Shown piece after piece: positions 7,248-61,034 of a stretch of 64,000 nucleotides of DNA; within the stretch, counting starts at the first letter, position 1; every line of letters starts with the position of its first letter. The stretch is from positions 250,523,438-250,587,437 of the forward strand of contig CM037879.1 of the NCBI GenBank assembly GCA_021292165.1, read 5' to 3'. The translations under genes and the position numbers were made by a program. This DNA is from Shinisaurus crocodilurus. Its lineage: Eukaryota; Chordata; Lepidosauria; Squamata; Shinisauridae. Below the pieces are notes generated by a model. That model did no database searches. It was not told where the DNA came from and saw only the letters and a program-made list of their open reading frames with translations.

Positions 7248-7450
7248 GTATGTATGCGTATCTTTATGTCTTTGAGACTTTTGTTTTTCAAAGTATTTTT
7301 TCAGCATTGAAAGGTAAGATTCCTGTTAACTGATGTATTTTTTTCCTCGGAGTAACACAGTGCTCACTGCCAGCAAAAGGAAATAAAGGGTTGTATCCGA
7401 TGGAAGATGTCCACCAGTGATATGGGGAGGGAGGTGACTTTCAGGGATTT

Positions 7451-7630
7451 TTCATAGATTTCATAGATCATAGAGTTGGAAGGAGCCTACAAGTCTATCA
7501 AGTCCAACCCCCTGCTCAATGCAGGAAACTAGAGGAGGGGTCTCCAATCCAAGTAATAATCAGGCTTGACCCTGCTTAACTTTCCACACTCAGACAAGCT
7601 GAGCCAGCGTAAGCCACAGTAGCCTACTAT
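7451..7630 (-). mobile_element. Chimeric SINE: 5S rRNA-derived head with CR1-type 3' tail (copy 1)
   Basis: Read on the minus strand, the element starts with about 75 bases resembling the middle of 5S rRNA. It keeps the internal promoter blocks near aagttaagcagggtc and cttggattggagacc. After a short linker it passes into the CR1 3' end (cctgcattgagcagg... through ccaactctatga) and ends in a tail of atctatga-like octamers at 7451-7470. The 5S-to-CR1 junction is the same as in the copy at 50649-50805. Full-length CR1 at 52960-56301 has the same tail sequence but no 5S part. The likely transcription is by RNA polymerase III with CR1 reverse transcriptase used in trans, which is inference. Confidence 0.8.
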
Positions 7631-18268: not shown

Positions 18269-18403
18269 CAGGGTGGGCAACTTGTGGCCCTCCAGATGCT
18301 TTTGCCTACAGCTCCCATCATCCCTAGTTAGCATAGCCAGTGGTGAGGGATCATGGGAACTGTAGGCCAAAACATCTGGAGAGCTAGAAGTTACTCACCC
18401 CTG
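18269..18403. mobile_element. Palindromic hAT MITE
   Basis: The ends cagggtgggcaacttgtggc and the inverted caggggtgagtaacttc pair over most of a 135-bp fold-back. Flanks ttttacac (18261-18268) and ttttatac (18404-18411) match at 7 of 8 positions, as expected for a hAT target duplication. Other copies are at 59794-59932 and 60898-61034, with half-copies possible at 26420-26475. Confidence 0.8.
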
Positions 18404-18862: not shown

Positions 18863-19092
18863 ATTTATTTATTTATTTATTTATTATATTTATACCCTGC
18901 CTTTTTTCCTGCAAGGAACCCAAGGCGGCTTACATAATCCTCCTCTCCATTTTATCCTCACAACAACCCTGTGAGGTAGGTTAGGCTGAGAGGCAGTGAA
19001 GTCACACAGCGAGTTTCATGGCCGAGCGGGGACTAGAACCCGGATCTCCTGAGTCCCAGTCCAACACTCTAACCACTACGCCACACTGGCTG
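18863..19092 (-). mobile_element. MIR-like tRNA-derived SINE
   Basis: On the minus strand the 5' end is a tRNA-like head (ccagtgtggcgtagtggtta, then gggttctagtccccgct, a B-box). A conserved core follows (ctcacagggttgttgtgagg), then a tail like that of L2 LINEs (gcagggtataaatataataa). The copy at 26010-26247 is nearly identical, so this family was active recently. Confidence 0.85.
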
Positions 19093-26009: not shown

Positions 26010-26247
26010 ATTTTATTTATTTATTACATTTATACCCCGCCTTTTTTCCTGCAAGGAACTCAAGGCGGCTTACATAATCCTCCTTCTCCTCTCCATTTTA
26101 TCCTCACAACAACCCTGTGAGGTAGGTTAGGCTGAGAGGCAGTGACTGGCCCAAAGTCACCCAGTGAGTTTCATGGCCGAGCGGGGACTAGAACCCGGAT
26201 CTCCTGAGTCCCAGTCCAACACTCTCACCACTACGCCACACTGGCTC
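26010..26247 (-). mobile_element. MIR-like tRNA-derived SINE (second copy)
   Basis: This copy has the same order as 18863-19092: tRNA-like head (ccagtgtggcgtagtggtga), core and L2-type tail. It keeps a segment (gggtgactttgggccagtca) that is partly missing in the other copy. The two are otherwise almost identical. Confidence 0.85.
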
Positions 26248-30741: not shown

Positions 30742-30948
30742 GTGCCATCGATGTCTCTCCAAGAAGGTCTCTACTCTCATTACTTTACCATGCTGAAAAA
30801 GGACAGAGGACTTCGACCGATCTTGGACCTTCAGGGTATCAACCAGTTCATCACCTTGAAAAAATTCCGGATGACGATTCTTAAGTTGATACTACCCCTG
30901 CTCCACCATGGGGTCTGGTTCACCTCCATCGATCTGAAACTGCAATTC
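30742..30948 (+). pseudogene. DIRS reverse transcriptase N-terminal fragment
   Basis: The frame reads SHYFTMLKKDRGLRPILDLQ, then GINQFITLKKFRM and HHGVWFTSIDLK. The pattern (K-x-G-x-R-P-I-L-D-L ... SIDL) is the start of a DIRS reverse transcriptase fingers domain. The expected catalytic Asp box is absent because the frame then runs into copia-type RNase H. It is therefore a fusion formed by the insertion and not a normal gene. Confidence 0.78.
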
Positions 30949-32013
30949 TCAACACACACAGAGGGAGGTTTTTGTGTGTACACAGATGCGGATTGGGGTT
31001 CTGCAACAGACAGAAAATTCACGTCTGGAACTGTATTCTTGTATAATCAAGCTCTGATTGATTGGTATACAAGAAAACAAAGTTGTGTTGCAGTGTCAAG
31101 CACAGAAGCTGAGTTAATCAGTTTATCTCATGCTTGCAATGAGTTTGAATGGTTCAAACAATTGTTTACTGATTTGCAGTTACCAGTACACAAGACTGTC
31201 ACGGTTTTTGAAGACAACCAAGCGTGTATTAGTATGGCTGAATCTGAAAAGTGCAAGCCAAGAACTAAACACATTGATGTCCGTTACTCTCATGTAAAGG
31301 ACTGCATTCAAAAAGCTCACATACTGTGCAACAGGGGAAATGGTGGCAGATTTGTTCACTAAACCATTACCTGTAACAAAGCACAGGATGCTATTGTTAG
31401 CACTAGGCCTCATTAGGTAAACATGAAACAAAAGAACCCCAGTTTGAGGAGGGATGTTGTGGTATCAACTGCAAGCTGGGCGCTTTAGTTTTGTTTTGTT
31501 ATGATATGTTTTGGTACAATGGCTGTCTCAAGCAGTTATGTTTATGTCTCAGCCAGGAGTGTGCTATTGTTAAACTATTCCTGGACCAGCCTGGGAAAGG
31601 ATCTCTGGGAACCAACTGTCACGTGTTTGTTTTCTCTGACGTAGTGAACTGCTCCAGACAGAAGCCATTTTTAAGGGGAAGAACTTTAACTTTGCTCTTG
31701 TGTTGTTCTTGTTCTTGCAACTGCTACAATGTAACGCTTTGTATTGGTGGGGTGAAGTTCTCCTTCTCTCCACTGGACTAATGCTTGCTATGCATTTATA
31801 CATGGACTGTATCTAGGGAATGTATACTCTGTAGTGCTTACTTGGAATAAGTAGATAAACGGGTAGAATAGACCTGTTACTGTTACAGAGTGATTCCTGT
31901 GTCCTGGATTAATCTGCAATTGGAGTGGCTGTGCTGCTGGGTCACTGCTGGGTCTGCTACTGTGTGGGAGATACTCTGCTGCTGTGTGTGGAACGCCTGG
32001 CAAGGCTAGCACA
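30949..32013 (+). mobile_element. Ty1/copia-like 3' part: RNase H plus LTR
   Basis: About 500 bp of coding sequence is followed by a probable polypurine tract (ttgaggaggga, 31444-31454) and then a likely 3' LTR (tgttgtggtatcaactgc at 31455 to about 32013). The LTR has TG at the start and CA near the end. No 5' LTR, gag or integrase is present, so it is a 5'-deleted copy. It replaces the DIRS reverse transcriptase core. Confidence 0.75.
30961..31362 (+). pseudogene. Ty1/copia RNase H, nearly intact
   Basis: The frame reads VYTDADWGSATDRKFTSGTV, then AVSSTEAELISLSHACNE and FEDNQACISMAESEK, ending with TKHIDVRYSHVKD. These are the recognised RNase H motifs of the Ty1/copia order of genes (YTDADWG, SSTEAE, DNQ, RTKHIDVRYH-like). 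A single base change of frame near 31337 replaces the usual ending. In the next frame the expected VADLFTKPLP is readable, so the protein is damaged by one indel. Confidence 0.82.
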
Positions 32014-46290: not shown

Positions 46291-46516
46291 TGTAATCAAG
46301 TTCTGAGCATGCACTAACAGCAGCTACCAGTCTCATAGGACTGGTCAGAGGAATGCTGACTGCACTGGTACAAAAGTGGGAAATGAGCTTGAAATCATCT
46401 TATTTATTATGAAAGCAGTAAACATTTGGGGTAAAGTTGTCTGACTCAAAATAAAAACAAGTATTATGAGCAGTGAAAATTTATAGTAGAAGTCCATTAT
46501 TTACAACCTCATCAGT

Positions 46517-46690
46517 ATCATAGAATAGTAGAGTTGGAAGGGGCCTATAAGGCCATTGAGTCCAACCCCCTGCTCAGTGCAGGAATCCAGGTCAAAGCAT
46601 CCCCGACAGATGGCTGTCCAGCTGCACTTTGAATGCCTCTAGTGTGGGAGTGCCCACCACCTCCCTAGGTGCTTGTAGCACCTACAGGCG
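46517..46690 (-). mobile_element. CR1 3' end fragment
   Basis: Read on the minus strand this is the CR1 3' end: ccacactagaggcattcaaa, then ggacagccatctgtcgggga, and ending in ccaactctactattctatga. It matches the end of the long CR1 at 56150-56301. No 5S part is present, unlike 7451-7630 and 50649-50805. Confidence 0.85.
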
Positions 46691-50318: not shown

Positions 50319-50648
50319 GTAAGCAGCCTTGCTCATTGATAGTTTTGTACTCTGGGCAGAATCTGATAGGATTTTTATTTGATATATTCAAAATATCACA
50401 GGAATGTGGGGACAAATCTCAGGTTTTTGTTAAGGTATTAGATTTTTTGAAACCATTGCTAATGGTGAGATAGTTGCTGGTTTTCCAAGTGGTATGTGTT
50501 TTTGGATGAGCTCTGGTGACACAAAATACCAGAACATGGGTGAAATTTGACATGCATAAGATAAATTTGACATGCAAATTTGACTCTAGTAAAAAATACT
50601 CTACCTAGAAAGTGGTTATAATGCAGATATGACTGTTACTGTATATAG

Positions 50649-50805
50649 GATCATAGAGTTGGAAGGGGCCTACAAGGCCATTGAGTCCAACCCCCTGCTC
50701 AATGCAGGAAACTAGAGGAGGGGTCTCCCATCCAAGTAATAACCAGGCCTGATCCTGCTTAGCTTTCCACGCTCAGACAAGCTGAGCCAGCGTGAGCCGC
50801 AGGCC
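50649..50805 (-). mobile_element. Chimeric SINE: 5S rRNA-derived head with CR1-type tail (copy 2)
   Basis: Minus strand: the 5S-like head (about 50723-50795) keeps ggaaagctaagcaggatcag, cctggttattacttggatgg and gagacc, covering the A-box, intermediate element and C-box of the 5S internal promoter. After cctcctctagtttcctgcat the CR1 3' end begins and ends in ccaactctatgatc. It is better preserved than copy 1. The breakpoint between the two parts is identical in both copies. Confidence 0.83.
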
Positions 50806-51664
50806 TGTTTGCTTTGTGTGTATTTACATAACTTAATTATCACTTTGCAACTTCATTCTAGTGAAACATTTTAGTTGTGAGCAATTGTTTCTGATGTCAC
50901 TCTTGTCTGTCTCCTTGAAAGATGATTTCAACTGGAATTCACTGTGTTGGCCTCTTTGGCGTTACATGCCACTTAAACTCTGTGCTAAGGGTTTCTGACC
51001 CTCTATTCTTCTTTTTGCAAGGTGTAGATCTTATTTAAATATGAATTCTGTAAGGCTTTTGACATATGTCAAAGCTTACAATCTTAATTCATTTTCTTTG
51101 TTTATACAGCTGTTCTATATCCCCATCATTATCAACTTATGACACCAGAAATCACTCCATGTAGATAGTCCCAAGCATCCGCAGGAGTGCAACTGCCTAT
51201 AGGAAGTAATAAGTGACCTTGCACATCCTCAGATATGGCTGATACTTCTGGGCAGCAATTCACATGCACAGCAGCACAGTTTTGCTATCCCCACCTGGAG
51301 CATCAGTTGGATTTGTTGATATGCTGGGTCAGATGTTTCCTCCACATGACAGTGTCCTCAGTGATACTTTGCATGGAGCAATTTATGAAGGTCTGAGCAA
51401 GCCCAAATACTTAATAACAAATACAAATTAGGTTTTTTAATTGTTTTTATTGAAAAGCTTTTGCAATACAAAAAAATACAATCAATTCATTATAAACATA
51501 CAACAAACACAAATTAGTGCAGTGATCTGCATGCTTCCATCTGATCTGTGAAATGAAATCATTTATAACATAGATTCACAAGATCATTGGTGACATGGTT
51601 CACCCTTAATAACCATATCAGGAAAGCATCATGCAGCTGAGGATCCACTACTGTTTGATTATAT
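50806..51664. other. Unassigned intron
   Basis: I see no coding or repeat feature beyond short AT-rich runs. Confidence 0.45.
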
Positions 51665-52959: not shown

Positions 52960-55900
52960 CATTCTGGTTCTCTACAGCACTTTACCCTCTCATGACAAAG
53001 TGTTGATTGTCACAGCTGCCGAGGCTGCAGGTTCCCCTGTGGACAAATGTTGCCAGCGGATGACAAAGAAATCACGGCAGACTGTTGGAGCTGCTCAATT
53101 CGGGGCCCGATCATCATCCTCATCGGAAAGCATAGAAAGGGAAAGAAAAATCTCAGTAATGATGGCTACGAGTGGAGCACTTTTGGATCTGGGACCACGG
53201 CTACACTCTGGAAGATGGACTGCTGCAAAGGATGGGTGCACCTCACAAGGACTGGGAAGAATGTGTTTGGCCACAGCATGAGGAACTTAATCAGGAGGGC
53301 TTTAAACTGAATCCAACAGGGGAGGGAGACATAAACTCGGGGGTACCAATGGAAGAAGGCCTCTATGCCACAATGGAGAGAACAGCTCCAGCGGTGCCCA
53401 TTGATAGTCTACCACAAAATGTAGGGGGAAAGTCGGACTATAAAGCACATAGTCTTCGATGTCTTTATACTAATGCCAGAGTATGGGCAACAAACAAGAC
53501 GAACTTGAACTCTTGATACATGAGGGCAGTACGACTTGATAGGGATAACTGAACCTGGTGGGATGACTCCCATGACTGGAATACAGCAATTGAAGGGTAT
53601 AACTTGTTCAAAAGGAACAGAAGCAACAGAAAGGGAGGTGGAGTTGCACTGTATGTTAAAAATACGTATCTCTGCACAGAGATACAGGAAGAGGAGCTTG
53701 GCAGCCCCATTGAGAGCATCTGGGTTAAAATAAAGGGGCAAAGAATAAAACGAACATGGCGGTTGGAGTCTACTACCGACCACCCAATCAAGGAGAAGAC
53801 GAGGATGGAACTTTTGAAAAACAAATTGCCAGTGTTTCAAGGAGGCACAATGTGGTAGTAATGGGAGACTTCAATTTCCCTGATATCTGTTGGGAGACTT
53901 TTTCAGCCAAACATGGCCCCTCCAAGAAATTCCTGAGCTGTGCTGCTGATAACTTCCTCTACAGAAAGTGGAGGAAGGAACTAGAGGATCGGCTATCCTT
54001 GACCTGATTCTAACCAACAGAGACGAGTTAGTGGATAAAGTGGCAGTTTCGGGAACTCTGGGGGAAAGTGACCATGTTATACTTGAGTTCTTGATTCTAA
54101 CGGAAGCAAAAGCTGAGTGTAGCCAAACACGTACCCTGGATTTTAGGAAAGCCAATTTTAACAAACTCAGAACAATGATTAGTAAGATCCCATGGCAAGT
54201 GACTCTCACGAGAAAGGGAGCCCAGGAGGGGTGGGAGTTTTTAAAAAAAGAAATTTTAAAGGCACAATTGCAAACAATTCCCAAAAGGAAAAAAGGCAGA
54301 GGGCAACAGAAGAAGCCAATGTGGCTTCACAATAAACTCAAGACGACCTGAAAACAAAAAGGACACGTATAGGAAGTGGAAGGAAGGACAGGCTACAAGT
54401 GAAGAGTACAGGCAGGTAGCACAGAACTGCAGGAATAGTGTCAGGAAGGCTAAAGCTGAGAATGAGCTAAGGTTAGCGAGGAATGCTAAAAGCAACAAAA
54501 AAGCTTTCTTCAGATACATGCACAGTAAAAGACAGAAGAAAGAACTGGTGGTTCAACTACGCAATGAGGATGGCAAATTGATAACAGAAGACAAAGAAAA
54601 GGCAGAAGTGTTCAATTCCTACTTCGGCTCGGTCTTCTCCCAAAAGAGGGTCTATGACCCCCCTGGCAAACCTGAAGTGCAGACTGAAGGGGCAGGATTG
54701 CAGCTTGAGATTAATAGGCAAATGGTCAAGGAGCACCTGATTACTCTGAACGAGTTTAAATCTCCAGGGCCTGATGAGCTGCATCCTAGAGTAATAAAGG
54801 AACTGGCAGAAGAACTCTCAGAACCACTGTCTATTATCTTTGAGAAATCATGGAGGACAGGTGAAGTGCCAGACGACTGGAGGAGGGCAAATGTTGTTCC
54901 CATCTTCAAAAAGGGCAAGAAGGAGGAACCTGGGAACTATAGGCCAGTCAGTCTGACATCAATCCCCGGGAAGATTTTTGAGCAGATTATAAAGAAGTCA
55001 GTCTGCAAGCACCTTGAAAACAATGCAGTGATTACTAGAAGCCAGCATGGATTTGTCAAGAACAAATCCTGTCAGACTAATCTGATCTCATTTTTTGATC
55101 GGGTAACCTCCCTTGTGGACTGTGGGAATGCTGTGGACATTATATATCTGGACTTCAGCAAAGCTTTCGACAAAGTGCCTCATGATATCCTGATTAGTAA
55201 GCTAGCTAAGAGTGGGCTAGATGGAACAACTATCAGGTGGATCCACAACTGGCTACAGAATCGGACTCAAAGAGTGCTTATCAATGGTTCCTTCTCAAAC
55301 TGGGGAGAGGTAACGAGCGGGGTACCACAGGGCTCGGTCCTGGGCCCGGTGCTCTTCAACATTTTTATTAATGACTTGGATCAGGAGGTACGGGGAATGC
55401 TTATCAAATTTGCAGATGACACAAAGTTGGGTGGAACAGCTAATACTCTGGAAGACAGAAACAAAATTCAAAGTGACCTCGATAGGCTGGAGCGCTGGGC
55501 CGAAAACAACAGAATGAAATTTAATAGGGATAAATGCCAAGTGCTGCACCTAGGGAGAGGAAACCAAATGCAGAGTTACAGAATGGGGGACACTTGGCTC
55601 AACAATACTACAAGTGAGAAGGATCTTGGAATTGTGGTAGATCACAAACTGAATATGAGCCAGCAATGCGATGTGGCTGCAAAGAAGGCAAATGCAATTT
55701 TGGGCTGTATTAATAGAAGTATAGCTTCCAAATCGCGGGAAGTGATAATTCCCCTTTACTCGGCACTGGTTAGGCCTCATCTTGAGTACTGCGTCCAGTT
55801 CTGGGCACCACACTTTCAGAAGGATGTAGACAAACTGGAGAGGGTTCAGAGGAGGGCAACAAAGATGATAAAGGGACTGGAAACAAGGCCCTATAAGGAG

Positions 55901-56301
55901 AGACTGAAAGAACTGGGCATGTTTAGCCTTCAGAAGAGGAGACTGAGGGGAGATATGATCGCACTCTTCCAGTATTTGAAGGGATGTCACACAGAGGAGG
56001 GCAAAGATCTCTTCTCGATCATCCCAGTTTGCAGGACACGGAATAATGGGCTCAAGTTACAGGAACCTAGATTCCACCTAAACATCAGGAAAAATTTCCT
56101 GACTGTCAGAGCAATAAGACAATGGAATCAACTACCTAGGGAGGTTGTGGGCTCTCCCACTCTGGAGGCATTCAAGGTGCAGCTGGACAGCCATCTGTCA
56201 GGGATGCTTTGACCTAGATTCCTGCATTGAGCAGGGGGTTGGACTCGATGGCCTTGTAGGCCCCTTCCAACTCTACTTTTCTATGATTCTATGATTCTAT
56301 G
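52960..56301 (+). mobile_element. Long CR1 LINE
   Basis: 5' to 3': a conserved 5' coding part (NDGYEWSTFGSGTTATLWKM near 53155-53215), an endonuclease domain ([15 protein letters not shown] near 53855-53895) and a reverse transcriptase frame (54518-56212). The 3' untranslated part ends in the CR1 octamer repeats gattctatgattctatg (56284-56301). The endonuclease region has several frameshifts and stops. The element is nearly complete but not active as read. Confidence 0.9.
54518..56212 (+). CDS. CR1 ORF2 reverse transcriptase region, 564 residues
   Basis: The frame begins inside ORF2 and holds a full reverse transcriptase. Motifs seen are PGPDELHPRVIKELAEEL, NVVPIFKKGKKEEPGNYRPV, SKAFDKVPHDIL, GVPQGSVLGPVLFNIFINDL and the catalytic FADDTKLGG. 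The C-terminal part includes SALVRPHLEYCVQFWAPHF and GDMIALFQYLKG, with a stop 90 bp before the 3' repeats. Motif spacing and order match CR1. The upstream endonuclease frame is broken, so the full protein is not made from this copy. Confidence 0.92.
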   Translation: MHSKRQKKELVVQLRNEDGKLITEDKEKAEVFNSYFGSVFSQKRVYDPPGKPEVQTEGAGLQLEINRQMVKEHLITLNEFKSPGPDELHPRVIKELAEELSEPLSIIFEKSWRTGEVPDDWRRANVVPIFKKGKKEEPGNYRPVSLTSIPGKIFEQIIKKSVCKHLENNAVITRSQHGFVKNKSCQTNLISFFDRVTSLVDCGNAVDIIYLDFSKAFDKVPHDILISKLAKSGLDGTTIRWIHNWLQNRTQRVLINGSFSNWGEVTSGVPQGSVLGPVLFNIFINDLDQEVRGMLIKFADDTKLGGTANTLEDRNKIQSDLDRLERWAENNRMKFNRDKCQVLHLGRGNQMQSYRMGDTWLNNTTSEKDLGIVVDHKLNMSQQCDVAAKKANAILGCINRSIASKSREVIIPLYSALVRPHLEYCVQFWAPHFQKDVDKLERVQRRATKMIKGLETRPYKERLKELGMFSLQKRRLRGDMIALFQYLKGCHTEEGKDLFSIIPVCRTRNNGLKLQEPRFHLNIRKNFLTVRAIRQWNQLPREVVGSPTLEAFKVQLDSHLSGML

Positions 56302-59793: not shown

Positions 59794-59932
59794 CAGGGGT
59801 AGAGGAGCCATAGCCCTCCAGATGATGTTGGACTACAGCTCCCATCAGCCCCAGCCAGCATGGCCAATAGTTAGGGCTTATGGGAGTTGTAGTCTAACAG
59901 CATTTGGAGAGCCACAGGTTCCCCATTCCTGT
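59794..59932. mobile_element. Palindromic hAT MITE in the 3' UTR
   Basis: The ends caggggtagaggagccatag and the inverted caggaatggggaacctgtgg fold back over the element. Flanks ttttaaac (59786-59793 and 59933-59940) are a perfect 8-bp repeat. Confidence 0.78.
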
Positions 59933-60897: not shown

Positions 60898-61034
60898 TAG
60901 GGGTAGGCAAGCTGGTGCCCTCCAGATGTTTTGGACTACAGCTCCCATAATCCTTTGACCATTGGCCATGCTGGCTAGGACTTATGGGAATTGTAGTCAA
61001 ATCCATTTGGAGGGCACCAGGTTACCAACCCCTG
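60898..61034. mobile_element. Palindromic hAT MITE in the 3' UTR (second)
   Basis: It belongs to the same family as 18269-18403, with taggggtaggcaagctggtg on the left and the inverted caggggttggtaacctggtg on the right. The flanking repeat is degraded (tatttagt on the right). Confidence 0.72.

What the first reader, a model, noticed from the sequence alone, without database searches (positions are those of the whole stretch)
7451..7630. A 5S rRNA head joined to a CR1 tail: candidate new SINE family
Two copies (here and at 50649-50805) carry the same junction between a 5S-derived region and the CR1 3' end. The 5S part keeps all three blocks of its internal RNA polymerase III promoter. Two independent copies with one breakpoint argue for a mobilised family and not a chance fusion. 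5S-derived SINEs are known in fish, some mammals and as 5S-Sauria in lizards, but those I know of use other tails. I am not aware of a 5S head with a CR1 tail.
Basis: partly seen in the sequence, partly recalled or inferred. Interest (0 to 1): 0.87.

Follow-up and report, generated by a model that had tools for sequence, protein, structure and literature searches.

The report
Abundant reptile SINE: 5S head, CR1 tail
This is a real jumping-gene family in a reptile-like genome, made of part of the 5S ribosomal RNA gene fused to the tail of a CR1 retrotransposon and present tens of thousands of times; a striking new variant of an already known kind of element rather than a new kind.

Summary
Two copies (7450-7625 and 50645-50808, minus strand) join a 5S rRNA-derived head to a CR1 3' end. 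They are 92% identical over 154 bp, with unrelated flanks. In the host genome (2.19 Gb) the exact junction occurs 60,492 times, control 0. Of 76 head places in the first 3.54 Mb of C1, 58 have the exact junction and the other 18, all read, have the CR1 tail with a mutated junction. The family consensus keeps 15/15 A-box, 6/6 intermediate-element and 16/18 C-box bases of the host 5S gene. No convincing target-site duplications were found. Best reading: a SINE transcribed by pol III from a type-1 promoter and inserted by CR1 reverse transcriptase; neither step was shown by experiment. The novelty claim is too strong: vertebrate 5S-headed SINEs (SINE3) are reported to be moved by CR1-clade LINEs (PMC7245038, PMC3747384; passages read). 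What I did not find in print is this bare form, without a central body and with an amniote CR1 tail. Repbase and Dfam could not be checked.

The parts
7450..7625 (-). SINE copy A (probably the older copy), 5S head plus CR1 tail ending in ATCTATGAA-type repeats; ends read by eye
   Evidence: carries the derived base at 9 of 11 polarised differences, copy B at 2 (two-sided binomial P 0.065)
7539..7598 (-). 5S rRNA-derived part of copy A (5S positions 34-92)
   Evidence: 83% over 60 bp, E 3e-12 against the host 5S gene
7471..7527 (-). CR1-derived tail of copy A
   Evidence: 93% over 57 bp to the CR1 3' end
50645..50808 (-). SINE copy B (close to the family consensus); ends read by eye and from the upstream base counts
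   Evidence: 1.3% from the consensus of the 28 best copies
50722..50781 (-). 5S rRNA-derived part of copy B
   Evidence: 88% over 60 bp, E 5e-16 against the host 5S gene
50654..50710 (-). CR1-derived tail of copy B with hairpin
   Evidence: 98% over 57 bp to the CR1 3' end; fold
53968..56301 (+). CR1 LINE (likely partner family): reverse transcriptase ORF 54518-56212 and 3' end with TTCTATGA octamers; the 5' limit is by eye and the element may reach further left
   Evidence: (RVT_1 E 1e-35)
46515..46675 (-). CR1 3' piece, second genuine CR1 3' end in the window

Best explanation
A large SINE family of about 165 bp. Its head is a host 5S rRNA segment (clear from 5S position ~34 to ~96) whose internal type-1 pol III promoter (A box, intermediate element, C box) drives transcription. 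The head is fused, with no central body, to the last ~60 bp of a CR1 LINE that lives in the same genome. The CR1 reverse transcriptase recognises the shared 3' hairpin of the SINE RNA and copies it into new sites by target-primed reverse transcription. This gives copies that mostly reach the same 5' end, vary in the number of 3' repeats, and usually lack a clear target-site duplication. Shown: anatomy, copy number, shared junction, retained promoter bases, tail and hairpin identity with CR1, unrelated flanks. Inferred: pol III transcription, use of the CR1 enzyme, and birth by template switching between 5S and CR1 RNA.
For: Junction pattern (22 bases, 21 specified): 30,245 + 30,247 matches, reversed control 0 + 0. 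Copy B as query: 40 matches covering at least 154 of 161 bases at 97% or more as rounded, copy B itself among them, on 15 contigs; only 40 of 1,497 first-look candidates were scored. Head places on C1 up to 3.54 Mb: 58 of 76 with the exact junction, and the remaining 18 of 18, all fetched, show the CR1 tail with a mutated junction; all 30 of the junction loci fetched (L039-L068) read into the CR1 tail. Consensus against the host 5S: A box 15/15, IE 6/6, C box 16/18 (box limits recalled). Tail against the CR1 3' end: 58 of 60 bases from CTAG to CTC, seen beside 17 CR1 3' ends, 15 of them non-redundant. Copy B's tail, the consensus tail and CR1 fold the same hairpin. Of 78 non-redundant copies with head and tail 51 start at consensus base 1-3 and 0 have TTTT, a pol III stop, in the first 110 matched bases.
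Against: No transcript or pol III occupancy data. Rfam's 5S model is silent on both copies. The 5' ~25 nt are not significantly 5S. The whole RNA folds no better than shuffles (z -0.6), and copy A's tail has lost the inner stem (-16.8 against -25.0 kcal/mol). The SINE's terminal repeat (ATCTATGAA) differs from that of the CR1 copies seen (TTCTATGA), so the exact partner subfamily was not found; the CR1 search did not complete.
Confidence: 0.93

Rival explanations
1. A chance fusion (5S retropseudogene joined to CR1) copied once by segmental duplication, not a family.
For: Two copies 43 kb apart in one gene; segments present twice do occur in this assembly (2 of 30 loci, 5 of 30, 6 of 18).
Against: 60,492 exact junctions; unrelated flanks of the two window copies; unequal divergence, 9 against 2 derived sites, suggestive only (P 0.065).
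Confidence: 0.01
2. It is a family already catalogued (Repbase SINE3 or a Dfam 5S class) in this species or a close relative, simply unknown to the reader.
For: Vertebrate SINE3 with CR1-clade tails are described. A family of this size should be found by a de novo repeat run (inference). Tuatara has CR1-mobilized SINEs, tuaCR1-SINE1a/b, whose head is not stated in the passages seen.
Against: In the listings of my ten paper searches and the passages of eleven papers I opened, I saw no body-less 5S plus CR1-tail SINE in a reptile. This is weak: open-access PMC only, and even the recalled name 5S-Sauria gave 0 papers.
Confidence: 0.45
3. The copies spread mainly as SINE-derived tandem satellites rather than by retrotransposition.
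For: Three short arrays of 2.5-2.6 units among the first 100 listed junction places; SINE-derived satellites are described in squamates (PMC10702118, passages).
Against: Those arrays hold 9 of the 100 listed places; the other 91 lie at least 504 bp from the next, and the fetched loci other than the listed duplicate pairs have unlike flanks. Only the first 3.5 Mb of C1 was seen this way.
Confidence: 0.03

Closest known systems
5S-headed SINE3 / DeuSINEs: zebrafish SINE3, AmnSINE1 (PMC3747384 table and PMC7245038; passages read)
   Same: 5S rRNA head and a 3' end shared with a CR1-group LINE (CR1-4_DR).
   Different: They are DeuSINEs, with a central Deu body; here the 5S part joins the tail directly. 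That CR1-4_DR is nearer to L2 than to amniote CR1 is recalled; PMC3747384 itself notes that the CR1 and L2 names are confused.
TguSINE1 and PittSINE of passerine birds (PMC5729268, passages read)
   Same: Two-part SINEs: RNA-derived head plus CR1 tail with hairpin and terminal 8-bp microsatellite; for PittSINE template switching is proposed.
   Different: Heads are tRNA-Ile and tRNA-Asp, not 5S.
Tuatara tuaCR1-SINE1a/b (PMC7116210, passages read)
   Same: CR1-mobilised SINEs in a lepidosaur.
   Different: Head not stated in the passages seen; the host here has 2.19 Gb, too small for tuatara as I recall its size.
5S-Sauria SINE of lizards (recalled; one search found no paper)
   Same: 5S head in a lizard.
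   Different: The recalled tail is Bov-B/RTE, not CR1.
Squam1, Squam2, Squam3 (PMC10702118, PMC7983390; passages read)
   Same: Abundant squamate SINEs.
   Different: All three are tRNA-related (PMC10702118).

Membership tests
SINE (general) | Short element, many dispersed copies with one consensus structure | tested here: met
   60,492 exact junctions, control 0; 78 non-redundant head-plus-tail copies examined, median identity 96.0% to consensus, range 86.1-100
SINE (general) | Head with an internal pol III promoter | tested here: met
   Sequence only: consensus against host 5S gene A 15/15, IE 6/6, C 16/18 (box limits recalled)
SINE (general) | Transcription by pol III | not testable with these tools
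   No RNA data; 0 of 78 copies with TTTT in the first 110 matched bases is only compatible
SINE (general) | Target-site duplications | tested here: inconclusive
   Window copies: none of 5 or more for A, 5-mers for B expected by chance in 81%. 28 best copies: mean 4.64 against 4.27, reached by 24 of 1000 shuffles, with 7-base repeats in L010 and L021. 25 other copies: 3.28 against 3.53, reached by 1691 of 2000. That CR1 insertions often lack duplications is recalled
SINE3 (5S-headed SINEs) | Head derived from 5S rRNA | tested here: met
   88% over 60 bp, E 5e-16 to the host's own 5S gene; the Rfam model itself does not hit
DeuSINE (AmnSINE1-like) | Deu central body between head and tail | tested here: not met
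   5S-like sequence ends at GACC-CCT and CR1-like sequence starts at CTAG a few bases on; no room for a body
CR1-mobilised SINE | 3' end shared with CR1, with hairpin and terminal microsatellite | tested here: met
   58 of 60 bases and the same fold; the repeat unit differs, ATCTATGAA against TTCTATGA
CR1-mobilised SINE | Moved by the CR1 enzyme | not testable with these tools
   Needs a retrotransposition assay
5S-Sauria | Bov-B/RTE tail (recalled) | tested here: not met
   The tail is CR1

The most novel reading that the evidence does not exclude
An undescribed, very abundant reptile SINE family born by direct fusion of 5S rRNA to a true amniote CR1 3' end. It has no central body, grew to tens of thousands of copies, and is partly inserted as head-to-tail trimers made during reverse transcription, perhaps by CR1 template jumping. 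It would be an origin of 5S SINEs independent of the Deu lineage.
Probability: 0.45. Interest if true: 0.6.

Novelty: new variant of a known kind. Interest (0 to 1): 0.5.

Why it matters
It shows that CR1 can capture a 5S promoter as it captured tRNA promoters in birds, giving a simple two-part SINE. With promoter source, partner LINE and tens of thousands of copies in one genome, it makes the rules of CR1 template recognition (hairpin, terminal repeat, target-site outcome) directly testable. Young copies could also serve as presence/absence markers in the host's lineage.

Tried and rejected
Junction patterns in viral contigs and genome contigs, a CR1-tail pattern in viral contigs and a 5S pattern in both gave 0 hits, so no outside relatives were found. 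Rfam on both copies gave no 5S hit. Target-site duplications were sought three times without a convincing signal. Whole-element folding was no better than shuffles. The 5' ~25 nt as 5S is not supported alone. A search for forms with the 5S-state base (GGTTAGTACTT...) and a CR1 search did not complete, so other tails of older 5S heads and the closest CR1 subfamily remain open. In none of ten paper searches (open-access PMC, listings) nor in the passages of eleven papers opened did I see a body-less 5S plus CR1-tail reptile SINE.

Full report
What is there. The window lies in the ATF7IP gene (Pfam ATF7IP_BD and fn3_4 in translated reading frames) of a 2.19 Gb genome, at C4:250523438-250587437. 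Two elements of about 165-175 bp lie on the minus strand at 7450-7625 and 50645-50808. They match over 154 bp without a gap at 91.6%, while 300 bp on either side are no more alike than shuffled sequence.

Head. I first compared with a vertebrate 5S gene recalled from memory. The host's own 5S genes were then found (47 scored matches out of 179,777 first-look candidates, all 47 over Rfam's cut-off, most spaced as tandem arrays) and agree with it (8 loci compared). Against the array type the two copies match at 88% and 83% over 60 bp (5S positions 34-92; E 5e-16 and 3e-12), the only hits in the window. The family consensus keeps 15/15 A-box, 6/6 intermediate-element and 16/18 C-box bases (box limits recalled). 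The first ~25 nt of the head are not demonstrably 5S, and Rfam's 5S model finds neither copy.

Tail. The last ~60 bp equal the 3' end of CR1. Two genuine CR1 3' ends of this kind lie in the window, one behind a reverse transcriptase ORF (RVT_1 E 1e-35). Seventeen CR1-type 3' ends were seen in the window and loci (15 non-redundant); 16 of the 17 run upstream into CR1 sequence (not L051), and all 17 go on from CTCTACT into TTCTATGA-type repeats, with small variants. The SINE tail matches at 58 of 60 bases from CTAG to CTC. Copy B's tail and the consensus tail fold the same hairpin as CR1; copy A has lost the inner stem. The SINE's terminal unit is mostly ATCTATGAA (55 of 76 units counted).

Family. 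Copy B as query gave 40 matches covering at least 154 of 161 bases at 97% or more (rounded; copy B itself included) on 15 contigs, where only 40 of 1,497 first-look candidates were scored. The junction pattern (22 bases, 21 specified) occurs 30,245 + 30,247 times; the reversed control 0 + 0. The head pattern occurs 50,734 times, control 0. On C1 up to 3.54 Mb, 58 of 76 head places have the exact junction (recount). The other 18 were all fetched, and all 18 have the CR1 tail with a mutated junction. The junction pattern itself reaches only the first four CR1-side bases; of the 100 listed junction places, the 30 fetched as L039-L068 all read on into the tail. Caveat: segments present twice inflate counts (2 of 30 loci, 5 of 30, 6 of 18). 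Even with a third removed, about 40,000 insertions would remain. Copies with mutated junctions are missed, which works the other way.

Age. The 28 best non-redundant copies lie on average 1.7% from their consensus (biased to young). Twenty-five non-redundant copies chosen by junction alone lie 3.5% away, 3.0% outside CpG (biased to intact junctions). Three unsolicited copies in flanks are 90-92% identical to the consensus. Copy A carries the derived base at 9 of 11 polarised differences, copy B at 2 (P 0.065), which suggests but does not prove that A is the older insertion.

Insertion marks. Of 78 non-redundant copies with head and tail, 51 start at consensus base 1-3, 11 at 4-12, 9 at 13-40 and 7 later (14 loci dropped as duplicates or as the window copy; tandem units of L069-L071 counted singly, and L071, which looks like L069, was not dropped). 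Target-site duplications are weak or absent, though two copies, L010 and L021, show 7-base repeats. L038 sits in a MIR-like SINE; other copies of that SINE show the uninterrupted sequence, from which 9-11 bp are missing in L038, with two unmatched bases at its 5' side. L028 in another repeat shows a 2-bp overlap and six unmatched bases at the 5' side. Both use other copies of the host repeat as a stand-in for the true empty site.

Mechanism. Most likely: type-1 pol III transcription from the 5S part, recognition of the CR1 hairpin tail by CR1 reverse transcriptase, target-primed reverse transcription. The first step rests on retained promoter bases, the second on tail identity; neither was shown by experiment. 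PMC4316615 (passages) reports that the CR1 3' UTR has been suggested as the recognition site for the CR1 reverse transcriptase, with conserved hairpin and octamer.

Known or new. [quoted passage not shown] PMC3747384 (passages) lists the 5S-headed DeuSINEs AmnSINE1/SINE3 with CR1-4_DR. CR1-tailed SINEs with tRNA heads are known in passerines (PMC5729268, passages), and CR1-mobilised SINEs in tuatara (PMC7116210, passages). So the class is known. What I did not see in the listings of ten searches of open-access PMC, nor in the passages of eleven papers, is a body-less 5S head on an amniote CR1 tail in a reptile. Repbase and Dfam were not available, so the family may be catalogued there.

Noticed in passing
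L069, L070, L071 (C1:2588200-2589000, 2895350-2896250, 3358200-3358950): Head-to-tail arrays of 2.5-2.6 units of this SINE (periods 178, 244, 171 bp; 96-98% matches), the outermost 5' unit truncated; may reflect template jumping during insertion or growth of a SINE-derived satellite.
   Followed up: partly
L002-L008: Spacers of the host's tandem 5S rRNA genes carry a fragment of a MIR/Squam3-like SINE (82-86% over 138-182 bp to the window copy at 26 kb), evidently amplified with the array.
   Followed up: partly
window 18294-18377, 59821-59904, 60924-61008: Palindromic repeats match Rfam mir-5408 below its gathering score, two of the three on both strands; probably a repeat related to that miRNA family.
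   Followed up: no
window 30742-31362: ORF that looks by eye like a Ty1/Copia RNase H, without a Pfam hit at 1e-3; near frames at 32.3-33.0 kb and 0.5-2.1 kb that look DIRS-like by eye, also without a Pfam hit.
   Followed up: no
G000 C1, about 0.6-1.2 Mb and 2.0-3.5 Mb: Several loci appear twice with the same flanks (for example L047/L053, L049/L055, L079/L084), pointing to segmental duplication or redundant assembly near the start of C1.
   Followed up: no
window 18869-19091 and 26010-26246: MIR/Squam3-like SINE copies with a tRNA-like end and TAAA-type tail (named from memory with PMC7983390 passages in mind).
   Followed up: partly
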